A stretch of 35,057 nucleotides of DNA, taken from the IMG/VR virus record IMGVR_UViG_3300042982_000006, positions 1-35,057 of that record. One strand, 5' to 3'. Positions within the stretch are counted from its first letter, which is position 1. Each line of letters begins with the position of its first letter. Made by a program: the position numbers and the translations under genes. The notes under the pieces are model-generated. The model searched no databases and had not been told where the DNA came from. It worked only from the letters and a program-made list of their open reading frames with translations. This DNA comes from a virus. Of the stretch, positions 1-27,690 are shown one piece after another.

Positions 1-28
1 CTCCTACAATCTCAATAGCTGCTTTCAT
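1..28 (-). CDS. Start of a truncated downstream gene
   Basis: Only the first nine codons (MKAAIEIVG) lie in the window; the gene continues beyond the left edge. Its ATG overlaps the TAA of the GGQ protein as TAATG, the same coupling used throughout this operon. No function can be assigned. Confidence 0.4.
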
Positions 29-519
29 TAGCAGTATCCTCCACAACCACAGTGCGTAGGGTGTCCTTGAGGCATCGCACACTCAAGGACAGGCCGATAG
101 TTCTCTTGGCTCAGGATGAGCAGGGTAGCTTTCAGGATCACATCATCGAAGTTTACACTGTAGCCAATCACCTCGTCAACAGCATTCTTACACTCCCTCA
201 AACCAGATCCAGTCTTCTCACGCACTTCCTTGATCATAGCTACTTTGTTAGCCATAGTGCGTTGCACTGGAGGCTGTGGGATGTAGCAATCCGTTTCCAT
301 ATAGGCGGATTGATGTGTCCCTACAAGGCCGTACAGGACATTAATAGCCCTTTCCTTGTTGGCGTATTGGCTACGCTCAGAGTCACAGGACACACCAAGG
401 CCAGAGGCTATGTGGTGCACAATGACACCAGAAGTTGTCAGTCCTACATGCTGGCCTCCAGCCCCATGACCAGTTTGTGGGAGGTAGGTGGTGATTCGTA
501 GTTCATGTGGCTCAAACAT
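28..519 (-). CDS. Short GGQ release-factor-like protein with a ribosome-stalk/EF-Ts-like C-terminal motif
   Basis: A 163-residue protein. Residues 7-66 match the catalytic domain of class I release factors and ArfB-type rescue factors, with GAGGQHV at 19-25 (GGQ 21-23) and the following CDSERSQYANKERAI stretch. That domain hydrolyses peptidyl-tRNA on the ribosome. The stop-codon-reading domains of RF1/RF2 are absent. Residues 92-117 (KVAMIKEVREKTGSGLRECK...) resemble the C-terminal domain of ribosomal protein L7/L12, or the UBA-like N-terminus of EF-Ts. The C-terminus ends HCGCGGYC. The start at 519 is chosen because GGAGA lies 6-7 bases upstream; a GTG start at 588 lacks such a site. Release-factor kinship is clear; the second module and the biological role (rescue, recycling or interference with host translation) are inference. 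Confidence 0.75.
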   Translation of the reverse strand: MFEPHELRITTYLPQTGHGAGGQHVGLTTSGVIVHHIASGLGVSCDSERSQYANKERAINVLYGLVGTHQSAYMETDCYIPQPPVQRTMANKVAMIKEVREKTGSGLRECKNAVDEVIGYSVNFDDVILKATLLILSQENYRPVLECAMPQGHPTHCGCGGYC

Positions 520-646
520 TGAAAGTCTCCTTGCATCGAGTGCATTGTATAAGGATGTACTTCTGTACTGTGAAGCCTTTACGATCACCGTTGGTTATCA
601 GCTTCGTCTTCAGATCGTGTAGACCAAAGAGACATTTCCAGTTCAT
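512..646 (-). CDS. 44-residue zinc-ribbon-like phage protein
   Basis: This gene is short and easily missed. It starts in an ATGA overlap with the upstream gene and its stop overlaps the start of the GGQ gene. The protein begins MNWKCLFG and has CTRCKETF near its end. One cysteine early and a CxxC late is the layout of small single-zinc-knuckle proteins common in large phages. Function unknown. Tight coupling on both sides supports it being translated. Confidence 0.6.
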   Translation of the reverse strand: MNWKCLFGLHDLKTKLITNGDRKGFTVQKYILIQCTRCKETFNV

Positions 647-2940: not shown

Positions 2941-2969
2941 ATTATAACACGTTAAGCGAAGGCGCTCAA
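2941..2969 (-). promoter_or_regulatory. sigma70 promoter
   Basis: Minus strand: -35 TTGAGC, 17-base spacer, -10 TATAAT (perfect). The promoter overlaps the last codons and stop of terD and points at the 108-residue gene. Confidence 0.65.
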
Positions 2970-3530
2970 CACTTGGTTTGGATCAGCTACAGCACTCTCA
3001 CCTACTGGTTGGAAGCCCCAGCCACCGGAAGCCTGACGTTGCAGAGTACCAATGTGCAGTGCAGTACCACCAACGAAGGTAGCCAGCTTGTAATCCTGAA
3101 TCAGATTACCGTCTTGATCGAACAGCTTGAAGCTACCGTTCTTGATCATGCTGAAGTCTTGCTGGCGTTTCTCAGCTTCGTGCAAGAAGACGAAGTGTTC
3201 AACCTTGTGGATGTGTGCTGGAATCTTGGTGATATCAGTGATCAGTTCCTCATCGTCATCACCTTCGCCAGTACGGTTGTCACGTGGGTAAACAACAGCA
3301 CCGTTGTAAGCTGACATGTTGTTGAAGAACACAACGTTTGCTACGTCACCGTTGATGCTGCCCTTAGCGTCGGTCAAGAAGGCAAAGACGTCGAGGTCAA
3401 AGCCAAAGTCTTTCGAAGCTCCGTGTACTGGGTGGCAGTCCCAGTTCAGCACGCCACGCAGGCGGGTCAGGGAAGGTGCGGCTTTCGACAGGTCCAACAT
3501 CATAGTAGTTTTGCTCAAGTTAAGCTCCAT
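2952..3530 (-). CDS. TerD-family tellurium-resistance-type protein
   Basis: A 192-residue protein of normal TerD length. N-terminal MELNLSK then LSKAAPSL and LNWDCHP, the central DFDLDVFAFL, VVFFNNMSAYNGAVVYPRDNRTGEGD and the acidic DDDEEL stretch are TerD-family hallmarks; in that family these acidic residues bind calcium. Ter proteins are linked to tellurite resistance, colicin and phage exclusion and membrane-linked stress responses; the phage role is unknown. It forms a cluster with TerC, a vWA protein and TelA. Start at 3530 has AGAGGA upstream; a dedicated promoter lies at 3565-3593. Confidence 0.9.
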   Translation of the reverse strand: MELNLSKTTMMLDLSKAAPSLTRLRGVLNWDCHPVHGASKDFGFDLDVFAFLTDAKGSINGDVANVVFFNNMSAYNGAVVYPRDNRTGEGDDDEELITDITKIPAHIHKVEHFVFLHEAEKRQQDFSMIKNGSFKLFDQDGNLIQDYKLATFVGGTALHIGTLQRQASGGWGFQPVGESAVADPNQVLSAFA

Positions 3531-3564
3531 TATCAAATCCTCTTTAGTAGTTTGGTGTGGGGCC

Positions 3565-3593
3565 ATTTTGGCCCCTTTTCAAGTGAGTGTTAA
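3565..3593 (-). promoter_or_regulatory. Promoter of terD with GGCC inverted repeat
   Basis: Minus strand: -35 TTAACA (overlapping the TerC stop), 17-base spacer, -10 CAAAAT. GGGGCCA-AAA-TGGCCCC spans the -10, and the transcript should begin near GGCCCCACACC, a start shared with two other promoters. Confidence 0.5.
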
Positions 3594-4270
3594 GCAGTAG
3601 TTGGCATGTTGATGCGTTTGTTGATGAAGGCAGCAGCTACTACAATCAGACCACCAACAACCTTAGCCAGCAAGTGGTTCACTTCACCGACGTGTTGTAC
3701 GAAGAATGGATCAGAGATCAACATTTCCGCACCAACCACGCCCAGCATTGCAGCACCGATCCAGATGATGATCTTGTACTTGTCCATCAGACCGCTCAGG
3801 TATTTAGCACCGTATACGATAACTGGGATACTCAGAGCGATACCAGCGATTGCGTAGATTGTCGAGTGTTCAGTACCAGAAGCAGCACCAGCTACAGCCA
3901 TTACGTTGTCCAGCGAGAGCATGAAGTCAGCTACGATGATGGTCCATACAGCGCCCCAAATCGTGTCTTTCTGTGCAACTTCATGCGGCTCATCGTGTCC
4001 AGTCAGAAGCGAGTAGCCAATCCAGACGAGGTACAGACCAGCTACCAGCTTGAGGAACGGCACACCCAGCAAGAAGGTTGCGAAGACTAGCAGAACAGCT
4101 CGGAGAGCTACAGCGCCAGCAGTACCAAGCAGGATCGCCTTACCTCGTACACTTACAGCCAGTGTGGCACATGCCAGAGCAATCACGATTGCGTTGTCCA
4201 GACCCAAGAGCAGGTCAATCATAACAATCTTGAAGATTGCTGCGAAGTCAAGCGAAGCTAGAAATTCCAT
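3590..4270 (-). CDS. TerC-family integral membrane protein
   Basis: A 226-residue polytopic membrane protein, normal length for the short YjbE/TerC group. Two conserved acidic intramembrane motifs are present: LLLGLDNAIVIALA near residues 20-33 and ADFMLSLDNVMAVAGAA near 114-130. Seven or so hydrophobic segments are visible. TerC proteins act in the inner membrane, probably in metal (manganese/calcium) transport or handling, and pair with TerD. It follows its own strong promoter at 4303-4331 and precedes terD. Confidence 0.9.
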   Translation of the reverse strand: MEFLASLDFAAIFKIVMIDLLLGLDNAIVIALACATLAVSVRGKAILLGTAGAVALRAVLLVFATFLLGVPFLKLVAGLYLVWIGYSLLTGHDEPHEVAQKDTIWGAVWTIIVADFMLSLDNVMAVAGAASGTEHSTIYAIAGIALSIPVIVYGAKYLSGLMDKYKIIIWIGAAMLGVVGAEMLISDPFFVQHVGEVNHLLAKVVGGLIVVAAAFINKRINMPTTA

Positions 4271-4302
4271 TGTGTTCCCCTTTGTTTGTTTGGTGTGGGG
4301 CC

Positions 4303-4331
4303 ATTCTATAGTGAGTGGCCCGCAGTGTCAA
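4303..4331 (-). promoter_or_regulatory. Strong sigma70 promoter of terC
   Basis: Minus strand: perfect -35 TTGACA, 17-base spacer, -10 TAGAAT. GGGCCA and TGGCCC flank a 12-base centre that includes the -10. The initial transcript GGCCCCACACCAAAC matches the terD leader. Confidence 0.75.
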
Positions 4332-4973
4332 TCATTTAGTTGCGAAAGCTTTGAACTCTTCGTTCAGCAGCAGTTCATAAAACTTGTTCTGGTCTACAAC
4401 CTTCGGATTCGGGATGTACAACACTTCAACAGTGTCATACTTCGCAGCGATGGCATCCAGATAACGTTTGTCACAACCGTTGCCGATAGCGACGATCTGT
4501 ACGAAGGTGTTCTCCAACGAGTCCAGTTGTTTCTCAAACTCAGGCTTGTCGTTGTTCTCACCATCGGTGATCAGTGCCAGATAGGTCGGAGTAGCTTTCT
4601 TGCCGAAGCTGAAGAAGCCGCTCTTGTTACTACCCTTCAGACCTTTGATAGCGTCAGCGAACGAAGTACCACCACCGGCACGAATGCCGTGTTTGTTGAT
4701 GTAGCGACCATGATCGTCAACGGTAGCATCAGGAGTGCGTTCAAACTTCGTGTTGAAGAAGCCCATTTCCATCTTGCCATCATCGTCAAACTTCATGGCA
4801 GCAGCCAAGAACAGATCGATAGTGTCTTGTACCCAACCGCAGCGGAACTCATCGTCCATACTGCCAGATTTGTCTACGGCGATCTTAACAGCCATAGTGA
4901 TTGGTGTGAAAATCTGAGCCTTAGCCAGATTGAGTTCCAGCGATTTAGTCAGATCCAACATTGCCATACCCAT
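4332..4973 (-). CDS. von Willebrand factor A domain protein of the Ter cluster (TerF/TerY-like)
   Basis: A 213-residue single vWA domain. A complete MIDAS metal site is visible: DKSGS (D34, S36, S38), T103 in GGGTSF and D137 in ITDGEN. vWA domains of ter operons are thought to assemble metal-dependent complexes with TerC and TerD. The N-terminus MLDLTKSLELNL echoes the start of TerD. Start at 4973 follows AAGGAGG; an ATG four codons later is also possible. The stop lies beside the terC promoter, so terC can be expressed separately. Confidence 0.85.
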   Translation of the reverse strand: MGMAMLDLTKSLELNLAKAQIFTPITMAVKIAVDKSGSMDDEFRCGWVQDTIDLFLAAAMKFDDDGKMEMGFFNTKFERTPDATVDDHGRYINKHGIRAGGGTSFADAIKGLKGSNKSGFFSFGKKATPTYLALITDGENNDKPEFEKQLDSLENTFVQIVAIGNGCDKRYLDAIAAKYDTVEVLYIPNPKVVDQNKFYELLLNEEFKAFATK

Positions 4974-4988
4974 AAATCCTCCTTTGGA

Positions 4989-5243
4989 TTAAATTTTGTT
5001 AGCCCAGTCTTTGTAGACTGCAAGCCGTGTGTTGAAGTCGTAAGGCTGACTCTTGTAGTCGAGATAGCCACCGAGCGAACCAAACCCTTTCAGGTAGGCG
5101 ACAATCTCGCCTTTCGCCTCGACAAACTCTTCCGCAGTGATCAGGCCAGCCCGAGCAGCGGCCTTGAGAGAATGGCACATCAGGCCATCCTTCTCATTGT
5201 ACAGCCCAGCTTCGATTACCTTGTTGAATGTCTCTTGAACCAT
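4989..5243 (-). CDS. Small hypothetical protein of the Ter cluster
   Basis: An 84-residue, mainly helical, soluble protein starting MVQETFNKVIEAGLYNEKD after AAGGAGG. I recognise no family. It sits between TelA and the vWA gene and is transcribed with the latter from the promoter at 5272-5300, which suggests an accessory role in the same complex. Confidence 0.65.
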   Translation of the reverse strand: MVQETFNKVIEAGLYNEKDGLMCHSLKAAARAGLITAEEFVEAKGEIVAYLKGFGSLGGYLDYKSQPYDFNTRLAVYKDWANKI

Positions 5244-5267
5244 TGTAGCCTCCTTTGTTTCGATGAG

Positions 5268-6410
5268 TTAGATTCTACCGGATTGCTTTAGGGCTGTCAA
5301 CAGTGTTTTCTGGCCTTCTACAATCTGAATAGCTTCTTGCTCACGTTTAGTTTGTGCATCAGTTTCAATGCGCTTCACTTCTACAACAGTCTCGTAAACA
5401 CGCGACCGCAGGGTTTGCAGCGTCTCACTTGTGATCACCGGAGTGTTCAAAGCTTTAGCGCTTTCAATGGCAGCCATCTTAGCACTGTCACCACCTTTGA
5501 TCAAGGTCTTTGTTGCCAAATCTCGCACATCGCCTGTCAGCTTCACACTCTTCTGAGTGTCCAGAGTCTGGATGAACAGTGCAAACTCCATCTTCACGAT
5601 AGGAATAGTCTGACTGATGATATCCTTCAACGTGCTGATAGTCACGCGAGACGTATCCTGTTGCTGACGAATCTTGGGACTGTTCAGTTCAGTCATAGCT
5701 TTCAGACGCAGGAGGTTGTCCAGCTTCAGTCGGAGACGGTTCAACTTTGTCTCAGCGTCCCTTACCTGCTGTACTTGCATGGCAGCCAGAGGACTATTAA
5801 GGTCAATCTCAGGCCAGCTTTTAATCTGATCATCCACGTAGGCGATCAGACGCTCAACGTCAGTCATTTCAGCAACGATCTTCTGGTAATGGTTGAAGTT
5901 TTCGTTGTACAAAGCTTCCAAGTCTTTCACCCACTCTTGTTGTACAGTGATGTGCGAAGAGATTTTACCCTCAAGGCCATCGAATACATCTTGTGCAGAT
6001 CGCAGGCGAAGAGTCAGGGTTGCCTTCACGTCAGTGAATTTGTTTTGCAACCAACCAACAACACCGCCCTTCTGCATCTGAGCAGGGTCGAGCTTGTCAA
6101 TTTCGTTGGTGATACCAGTGAGGATAACACCAAGGTCATCAAACTTACCAACCACCATCTTATCGATGATCTTCTGAGTAGTGAAACCAATTTCTCGGGA
6201 CACAGACTCACCGATCTTGTCAATGTCAGCATCAGACACAACCAGCGAAGGCATAGCCACGCCAGATGGTTTCTGCATTACGATTGGGCTGTCTACTTGT
6301 ACAGGGATCACCTGACGTTGTACTGGGGCAGGTGCTGTCGCCACTGGGGTCGGGTCTTCCCGATAGCCAACTGGTGCGGACGAAATACCTGCTTTACCGA
6401 ATACGCTCAT
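5268..6410 (-). CDS. TelA/KlaA-like toxic-anion resistance protein
   Basis: A 380-residue protein matching the TelA family in length and pattern. A proline-rich N-terminus (residues 15-55) is followed by a long helical coiled-coil body containing LTGITNEIDKLDP, GWLQNKF and a conserved LQTLRSRVYETVVEV-type tail. TelA proteins accompany tellurite-resistance genes and colicin/phage-inhibition loci; the mechanism is unknown. Start at 6410 has ACGGAGAG upstream and lies 17 bases inside the upstream gene; an ATG at 6440 has no such site. It heads the TelA-x-vWA-TerC-TerD group. Confidence 0.88.
   Translation of the reverse strand: MSVFGKAGISSAPVGYREDPTPVATAPAPVQRQVIPVQVDSPIVMQKPSGVAMPSLVVSDADIDKIGESVSREIGFTTQKIIDKMVVGKFDDLGVILTGITNEIDKLDPAQMQKGGVVGWLQNKFTDVKATLTLRLRSAQDVFDGLEGKISSHITVQQEWVKDLEALYNENFNHYQKIVAEMTDVERLIAYVDDQIKSWPEIDLNSPLAAMQVQQVRDAETKLNRLRLKLDNLLRLKAMTELNSPKIRQQQDTSRVTISTLKDIISQTIPIVKMEFALFIQTLDTQKSVKLTGDVRDLATKTLIKGGDSAKMAAIESAKALNTPVITSETLQTLRSRVYETVVEVKRIETDAQTKREQEAIQIVEGQKTLLTALKQSGRI
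5272..5300 (-). promoter_or_regulatory. Strong sigma70 promoter inside the telA 3' end
   Basis: Minus strand: perfect -35 TTGACA, 17-base spacer, -10 TAGAAT. It lies over the last codons of telA and drives the 84-residue gene and the vWA gene. Confidence 0.72.
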
Positions 6411-6606
6411 TCTCTTCTCTCCGTTTGATTGCACGTTCAAGTGCTGATGTGAGTAATTCTACGCTTCTTGGCCATGTGCCGTCAAGCACTGCTTGGTTAT
6501 ATTCTGCATCAAGACCTTCATTGAGATAGCGATCCAAGAATTCCTCTGACACACCACAAGCTTCAAGGTGGCGTAGGTCTTTGCAGAATTGGCATTCACA
6601 CGCCAT
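6394..6606 (-). CDS. Small hypothetical protein with N-terminal Cys pair
   Basis: A 70-residue protein beginning MACECQFCKDLRHLE. It starts inside the 3' end of the upstream gene (11-base overlap, weak GGGAAG site), and its end overlaps telA by 17 bases. CECQFC could bind zinc. The rest is charged and helical. Unknown family. Confidence 0.6.
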   Translation of the reverse strand: MACECQFCKDLRHLEACGVSEEFLDRYLNEGLDAEYNQAVLDGTWPRSVELLTSALERAIKRREENERIR

Positions 6607-27308: not shown

Positions 27309-27383
27309 TCCTTCTTGCCTGAGCGGCTAGGGTGCTGATTGCAAACCAGTAACAGATCGGTTCAACTCCGATAGAAGGCTCCA
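27309..27383 (+). tRNA. tRNA-Cys (GCA)
   Basis: Acceptor TCCTTCT/AGAAGGC (first pair open), loop TTGCAAA, T-loop TTCAACT, U73, CCA encoded. Confidence 0.92.
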
Positions 27384-27387
27384 ATAT

Positions 27388-27464
27388 GCGTGTGTCGTAT
27401 AGTCAGGTTATTACCTCCGGCTTCCACCCGGATGACTAGGGTTCGAATCCCTACACCCGCACCA
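27388..27464 (+). tRNA. tRNA-Gly (TCC)
   Basis: Acceptor GCGTGTG/CACCCGC with one mismatch, loop CTTCCAC, T-loop TTCGAAT, CCA encoded. Confidence 0.93.
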
Positions 27465-27493
27465 AATAAAGTTCGGGGTCTTTATAAAACCCT

Positions 27494-27523
27494 AAGTGGC
27501 TGGGCACTTGTCAACCCTCCAGC
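27494..27523 (+). ncRNA. H-type pseudoknot upstream of tRNA-Phe
   Basis: AAGTG (27494)/CACTT (27505) with loop GCTGGG pairing to CCAGC (27519) across loop GTCAACCCT. It ends seven bases before the tRNA. Loop 1 is very short, so one closing pair may open. Confidence 0.4.
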
Positions 27524-27530
27524 TTAATTC

Positions 27531-27606
27531 GCATTCTAAGCTAACTAGGTAGAAGCGGTGGCCTGAAAAGTCACAGGATGTGGATCGTTACCACAAGAAT
27601 GCACCA
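27531..27606 (+). tRNA. tRNA-Phe (GAA)
   Basis: Acceptor GCATTCT/AGAATGC, loop CTGAAAA, CCA encoded. T-arm TGTGG-ATCGTTA-CCACA with swapped 54/58 bases. Confidence 0.93.
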
Positions 27607-27612
27607 AACAAT

Positions 27613-27690
27613 GAGTCCGAGTAGTATATTTGGTAATACGCCTTCGCCCAATGAAGGAGAACAGGGTTCGATTCCCCCTTTGGCTCACCT
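27613..27690 (+). tRNA. Degenerate or atypical last tRNA
   Basis: Acceptor GAGTCCG/TTGGCTC (one mismatch) followed by A-CCT instead of CCA. Arm CCTTC-GCCCAAT-GAAGG has C33 and would give CCA (Trp). The T-loop TTCGATT is normal but its stem is only three pairs. Probably a pseudo-tRNA, or part of the folded 3' end of the array. Confidence 0.5.

What the first reader, a model, noticed from the sequence alone, without database searches (positions are those of the whole stretch)
28..519. GGQ release-factor domain joined to an L7/L12- or EF-Ts-like motif
A 163-residue protein has an intact GGQ hydrolase domain without stop-codon reading domains, and a C-terminal segment resembling the factor-recruiting part of the ribosome stalk or EF-Ts. 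It could rescue stalled ribosomes, recycle them after tRNA attack, or hijack host translation.
Basis: partly seen in the sequence, partly recalled or inferred. Interest (0 to 1): 0.78.

Follow-up and report, generated by a model that had tools for sequence, protein, structure and literature searches.

The report
Phage release-factor/ribosome-stalk-mimic fusion protein
A Pseudomonas phage makes a small protein that joins a translation-release-factor domain to the part of the ribosome stalk that grips translation factors; nearly all its relatives have lost the catalytic glutamine, so it is probably a phage tool for steering the host's ribosomes rather than a true release factor.

Summary
The window is a 35-kb fragment of an Otagovirus-like Pseudomonas phage. 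The 163-aa protein has an RF-1 (GGQ) domain (residues 3-69, E 4e-14), no stop-codon-reading domain, and residues 89-116 match the L7/L12 C-terminal domain (E 5e-6). Only the factor-binding α-α hairpin of L7/L12 is present. AlphaFold makes residues 92-140 a confident three-helix bundle, more like the EF-Ts N-domain/UBA fold than L12's βααβαβ. The fusion is conserved in 23 further distinct otagovirus sequences and was found nowhere else I searched; records call it "peptide chain release factor 1" or "hypothetical". Key new fact: in all 23 the catalytic Gln is Met (GGM; Ep020 SGM). The window alone has GGQH, although its closest relatives have GGM or no GGQ domain. One 98-kb otagovirus contig keeps the hairpin and Cys-rich tail but has no RF-1 domain. 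Related short RF-1 proteins of Vibrio phages also lack an intact GGQ. Peptidyl-tRNA hydrolysis is therefore unlikely to be the family's shared job. I favour a ribosome/GTPase-binding translation modulator; the window copy may have kept or regained hydrolysis. New variant of a known kind; function inferred, not shown.

The parts
28..519 (-). 163-aa RF-1-domain/L12-hairpin fusion protein (stop codon 28-30)
   Evidence: homologues; PHROG family 35727 E 3.7e-44
313..513 (-). RF-1 (GGQ) domain, residues 3-69
   Evidence: Pfam PF00472 E 4e-14; 5.1e-16; RF1 structures E 3.4e-17 with the family profile
451..459 (-). GGQ tripeptide (residues 21-23; GGA GGC CAG); GGM or SGM in all otagovirus relatives
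256..312 (-). variable linker, residues 70-88
   Evidence: pN/pS about 0.64 for residues 67-88, against 0.31 in the RF-1 domain
172..255 (-). L7/L12 C-terminal-domain-like helical hairpin, residues 89-116
   Evidence: Pfam PF00542 27.1 bits; bL12 in PDB E 1.4e-9 with the family profile
100..150 (-). third helix (residues 124-140) completing a UBA/EF-Ts-N-like three-helix bundle
   Evidence: AlphaFold2, pLDDT about 90 for residues 91-130 and 79 for 131-140; VIA-align matches to EF-Ts N-domains, Z 4.5-5.8
31..93 (-). Cys/His-rich tail, residues 143-163 (4 Cys, 2 His, no Lys/Arg); a different Cys-rich tail (CVCGGDLPAIREGC) in many relatives
527..532 (-). Shine-Dalgarno-like AAGGAG, 7 nt before the start codon
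   Evidence: read from sequence
512..646 (-). upstream 44-aa ORF overlapping the start of the fusion gene by 8 nt (likely translational coupling); no Pfam match

Best explanation
An otagovirus protein that acts on the host translation machinery. Shown by sequence: an RF-1-type domain joined through a variable linker to a copy of the factor-binding helical hairpin of bL12, completed by a third (predicted) helix into an EF-Ts-N/UBA-like bundle. Inferred: the RF-1 domain docks at the A site/peptidyl-transferase centre of the 50S subunit, and the hairpin holds a host translational GTPase (EF-Tu, EF-G, IF2 or RF3, the known partners of this L12 surface). It would thus steer ribosomes or factors towards phage needs, for example by occupying or clearing idle or stalled ribosomes early in infection. 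In most members it probably does not work as a hydrolase, because the catalytic Gln is Met. The window's copy, with GGQH, may in addition be able to cut peptidyl-tRNA.
For: Both domains are found over curated cut-offs and in all 14 relatives scanned. Residues matching the L12 factor-binding surface (K92, V93, I96, K97, R100, G104, G106, L107, K/R108, E109, K111) are invariant or nearly so across 23 relatives. The RF-1 domain is under purifying selection in GGM members (mean pN 0.20, pS 0.64) and keeps SERSQ.ANK, so it is functional without Gln. Exactly one L12-like hairpin was found in each otagovirus record searched, and a 98-kb contig without any RF-1 domain still keeps it. In phiPsa315 the gene lies about 2.5 kb from a genome end with direct terminal repeats, among small overlapping ORFs. 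The window also carries 23 tRNA genes, which fits a phage that manages translation. Phage bL12 domains inserted in other proteins are known (PMC6375957).
Against: No experiment and no complex model. The RF-1 part of the AlphaFold model is low-confidence. Binding of a GTPase rests on resemblance to L12/EF-Ts only. The protein is acidic (pI 6.2), unusual for a stand-alone ribosome binder, and in ArfB the GGQ domain alone does not bind ribosomes (PMC3950681).
Confidence: 0.45

Rival explanations
1. A codon-independent peptidyl-tRNA hydrolase that rescues stalled ribosomes. The window's GGQH is the ancestral, active state (or a regained one), and the hairpin replaces the ArfB tail as the ribosome or factor anchor.
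For: Intact GGQH in the window; Boevelstad, a more distant phage relative, also has GGQ. In RFs the Gln side chain has a packing/water-coordinating role whereas the two glycines are indispensable (PMC5799190), so even GGM need not be fully inactive.
Against: Met at the catalytic position in 23 of 23 distinct relatives, and Ep020 has also lost the first Gly. The window's nearest relatives by the Ter-gene tree have GGM (Pyxpy02) or no GGQ domain (G005). The GGQ-following Asn of RFs is Gly, and the window has lost the Pro of HIP[ST]G that all 23 relatives keep. No basic tail.
Confidence: 0.2
2. A decoy: the hairpin mimics the ribosome stalk (or EF-Ts) and ties up EF-Tu or EF-G away from host ribosomes, while the RF-1 domain is only a scaffold. 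Effect: host translation shut-off.
For: The hairpin is the part retained when the RF-1 domain is absent (G005). L12-like hairpins sit in unrelated phage proteins (L026-L028; PMC6375957).
Against: The RF-1 domain is the slowest-evolving part, which does not fit a passive scaffold.
Confidence: 0.2
3. A general RNA- or tRNA-binding use of the RF-1 fold off the ribosome (for instance binding tRNA CCA ends or protecting phage tRNAs), with the hairpin recruiting EF-Tu to tRNA.
For: The catalytic motif is dispensable and the window carries 23 tRNA genes.
Against: No direct support. Vibrio phages carry similar Q-less RF-1 domains without the hairpin.
Confidence: 0.08

Closest known systems
PHROG 35727 (otagovirus family, unknown function; GenBank 'peptide chain release factor 1')
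   Same: Same protein family and same two-part architecture
   Different: Relatives have GGM or SGM; the window has GGQH, and its tail differs from the common CVCGGD type
ArfB/YaeJ and ICT1 (codon-independent GGQ rescue factors)
   Same: Single RF-1 domain without codon-reading domains
   Different: No basic mRNA-channel tail; L12/EF-Ts-like bundle instead; catalytic Gln lost in the relatives
Phage-encoded bL12 domains (Mizuno et al. 2019, PMC6375957)
   Same: L12 factor-binding motif embedded in a larger phage protein, present in some relatives and absent in others
   Different: The partner is a release-factor domain; only the helical hairpin is kept
EF-Ts N-terminal (UBA-like) domain
   Same: Predicted three-helix bundle; 23-32% identity over 44-53 residues
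   Different: No EF-Ts core; by sequence profile the hairpin is closer to L12
Q-less release-factor paralogues (Dom34/Pelota, MRPS35, most baeRF-1; PMC6514570)
   Same: Release-factor fold kept while the catalytic Gln is lost; Dom34 works with a translational GTPase (recalled)
   Different: Dom34 and baeRF-1 belong to the unrelated aeRF-1 fold; MRPS35 is flanked by other helical domains, with no L12-like hairpin reported

Membership tests
Class-I release factor RF1/RF2 | RF-1 (GGQ) domain | tested here: met
   PF00472 53 bits, cut-off 35
Class-I release factor RF1/RF2 | Full-length protein with stop-codon recognition domain | tested here: not met
   163 aa; TIGR00019 prfA 49.9 bits against cut-off 423, matching only profile positions 220-278 of 361
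ArfB/YaeJ rescue factor | GGQ tripeptide | tested here: met
   Present in the window; GGM or SGM in the 23 relatives
ArfB/YaeJ rescue factor | Basic C-terminal tail for the mRNA channel (required for ribosome binding, PMC3950681) | tested here: not met
   Net charge -2 after residue 66; no Lys/Arg in residues 143-163; net charge 0 to -3 in all relatives
PrfH (RF-H) | Equivalog score TIGR03072 | tested here: not met
   44.1 bits against cut-off 166.65
PrfH (RF-H) | Partner RtcB ligase gene next to it | not tested
   No RtcB search was made; the window ends 27 bases beyond the gene
Ribosomal protein bL12 | Factor-binding alpha-alpha hairpin of the C-terminal domain | tested here: met
   PF00542 27.1 bits, cut-off 25.9; PDB bL12 E 1.4e-9
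Ribosomal protein bL12 | Complete C-terminal domain (beta-alpha-alpha-beta-alpha-beta) and N-terminal uL10-binding domain | tested here: not met
   Only profile positions 9-36 of 67 match; TIGR00855 22.4 bits against 84.4; the model shows no strands around the hairpin
Elongation factor Ts | N-terminal UBA-like three-helix domain | tested here: inconclusive
   Three confident helices; VIA-align Z 4.5-5.8 to EF-Ts N-domains, tied with RuvA and other UBA folds; EF-Ts_N in 2 of 15 sequences, best E 4.3e-5
Elongation factor Ts | Core and dimerisation domains | tested here: not met
   TIGR00116 16.4 bits against 104, only positions 2-30 of 293
PHROG 35727 | Profile match over RF-1 domain and hairpin | tested here: met
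   E 3.7e-44, positions 1-121 of 162; 14 of 14 members scanned

The most novel reading that the evidence does not exclude
A phage-made, single-chain counterpart of Dom34-Hbs1: a release-factor fold without hydrolytic activity (GGM) that sits in the A site of idle or stalled ribosomes and, through a built-in copy of the stalk/EF-Ts hairpin, recruits a host translational GTPase to clear or re-start them without releasing the peptide.
Probability: 0.1. Interest if true: 0.85.

Novelty: new variant of a known kind. Interest (0 to 1): 0.52.

Why it matters
These genes are annotated as 'peptide chain release factor 1' in phages proposed for biocontrol of Pseudomonas syringae, yet they have no stop-codon-reading domain and nearly all have lost the catalytic Gln. 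A release-factor fold that stays under purifying selection without its catalytic residue, joined to the ribosome's own factor-recruiting hairpin, points to a way for phages to control ribosomes. The rare GGQ copy in this window gives a natural pair (GGQ against GGM) with which to ask whether hydrolysis is part of the job.

Tried and rejected
(1) Plus-strand reading of 28-519: no such gene; the protein is on the minus strand. (2) Contaminating bacterial RF: rejected for this family because the hairpin fusion and synteny with Ter genes recur in many phage genomes. Some other hits in the phage collection (Y1, Listeria, Salmonella and Acinetobacter records) look like ordinary full-length bacterial RF genes and were left out. 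(3) Complete bL12 domain: not supported. (5) Known defence protein: no PADLOC match. (6) First viral-contig scan with the window protein alone found nothing; the family profile found 9 loci. (7) Foldseek with the whole model gave no match at E <= 0.001; the RF-1 half of the model is low-confidence. (8) Trees of the 66-residue RF-1 domain are unstable, so whether GGQ in the window is ancestral, regained or recombined in is not settled. The tree of four Ter-cassette proteins places the window with Pyxpy02 (GGM) and G005 (no RF-1 domain), support 0.999. The ter genes may have their own recombination history.

Full report
WHAT IS THERE. The window is a 35,057-base virus record whose first 25 kb align over more than half their length, at about 78% identity, to Otagovirus phages of Pseudomonas. 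The gene of the finding lies on the minus strand, 519 to 28: ATG start, AAGGAG 7 nt upstream, an 8-nt overlap with a preceding 44-aa ORF, and 163 codons.

DOMAINS. Pfam finds RF-1 over residues 3-69 (E 4e-14) and the L7/L12 C-terminal domain over residues 89-116 (E 5.2e-6, just over its cut-off). All 14 sequences scanned carry both. A profile of the C-terminal parts of 15 sequences finds bL12 chains in the PDB at E 1.4e-9 and EF-Ts only at 0.26, so by sequence the hairpin is L12-like. The match stops after the two helices (positions 9-36 of 67). AlphaFold2 on a six-sequence alignment gives three helices, 92-103, 107-118 and 124-140 (pLDDT about 90 for residues 91-130, 79 for 131-140), with no strands around them. 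The second look against the PDB places these residues on UBA-type bundles: RuvA domain III (Z 6.0), EF-Ts N-domains of several species (Z 4.5-5.8, 23-32% identity over 44-53 residues) and other UBA domains. These Z values are tied and modest, so only a UBA/EF-Ts-N-like arrangement can be claimed. That EF-Ts and L12 share this motif for contact with EF-Tu is known to me from the literature (recalled, not checked here). The RF-1 half of the model is of low confidence and adds nothing to the Pfam evidence.

THE CATALYTIC RESIDUE. I extracted the gene from 23 further distinct otagovirus sequences (annotated phage records and IMG/VR contigs) and from phage Boevelstad. All 23 have Met where release factors have Gln: GGMTV, GGMSV or GGMQV, and SGMSV in Ep020. 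At near-saturated synonymous sites (mean pS 0.64) the domain is conserved (pN 0.20), and Met is invariant. GGM therefore looks like a selected state, not decay. The window has CAG CAT (Gln-His) where most relatives have ATG ACN, a difference of four bases in six, so it is unlikely to be a read error. Boevelstad, with a bare 75-aa RF-1 domain and no hairpin, has GGQQ. In a tree of four Ter-cassette proteins the window groups with Pyxpy02 (GGM) and contig G005 (no RF-1 domain) with support 0.999. Parsimony then favours a regained or recombined GGQ in the window over an ancestral one, but trees of the short domain itself are too unstable to decide. The window also lost the proline of the HIP[ST]G turn that all 23 relatives keep.

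WIDER FAMILY. In Vibrio phages, 82-136-aa proteins over the Pfam RF-1 cut-off or just under it have LG[QNG]W in place of GGQ, and a 349-kb Vibrio phage has SCGMQ. According to PMC5799190, changes of either glycine abolish release, while the Gln side chain packs and coordinates water. Loss of an intact GGQ is therefore common among short phage RF-1 proteins. Known Q-less release-factor relatives (Dom34, MRPS35, most baeRF-1) are regarded as non-hydrolytic (PMC6514570). I cannot exclude residual activity of GGM.

THE HAIRPIN. Each of the 14 otagovirus records searched holds exactly one L12-like hairpin. G005 (98,292 bases) keeps hairpin and Cys tail behind an unrelated N-terminus and has no RF-1 match anywhere. 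Three other phage contigs carry the hairpin in unrelated proteins. Mizuno et al. (PMC6375957) had already reported bL12 domains variably placed in phage proteins and lost in relatives. So the hairpin behaves as a module. PHROGs already holds the family (35727, unknown function), and databases name it 'peptide chain release factor 1' or hypothetical. I found no paper describing the fusion or the Gln-to-Met change (open-access library only).

MECHANISM. Shown: two conserved modules, loss of the catalytic Gln in the relatives, purifying selection, no codon-reading domain, and no ArfB-type basic tail (required in ArfB, PMC3950681). Inferred: the RF-1 fold meets the 50S A site; the hairpin binds a translational GTPase; together they steer or clear ribosomes for the phage. 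The gene's place about 2.5 kb from a terminal repeat end among small overlapping ORFs in phiPsa315 suggests, but does not show, early expression. The 23 tRNA genes of the window fit a phage that invests in translation. Hydrolytic rescue (0.2) and a stalk-mimicking decoy (0.2) remain live rivals.

VERDICT. Observation confirmed (minus strand). Interpretation partly supported. New variant of a known kind; of moderate interest because the release-factor label is probably wrong for the family and the GGQ/GGM contrast is directly testable.

Noticed in passing
23621-27689 (+): Array of 23 tRNA genes covering nearly all amino acids, two of them tRNA-Trp(cca).
   Followed up: no
2952-6440 (-): Tellurium-resistance-like cassette (TerD-, TerC-, vWA- and TelA-like ORFs), syntenic with named genes in otagoviruses.
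   Followed up: partly
L024:4710-5252 (G005): Otagovirus contig in which the L12-like hairpin and CVCGGD tail stand behind an unrelated N-terminus and no RF-1 domain is found in the 98-kb record.
   Followed up: partly
L042, L043, L044, L073, L074, L076: Short RF-1-domain proteins of Vibrio phages with LG[QNG]W instead of GGQ, annotated as release factor or as 'double-stranded RNA-binding domain protein'.
   Followed up: partly
L075:523-1107: A 349-kb Vibrio phage protein with a C-terminal RF-1 domain whose motif reads CGM: Met at the catalytic position in a second phage group.
   Followed up: no
31-93 (-): Cys/His-rich tail (CAMPQGHPTHCGCGGYC); relatives carry this or another Cys-rich tail, or none. 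Possible metal site, modular exchange.
   Followed up: no
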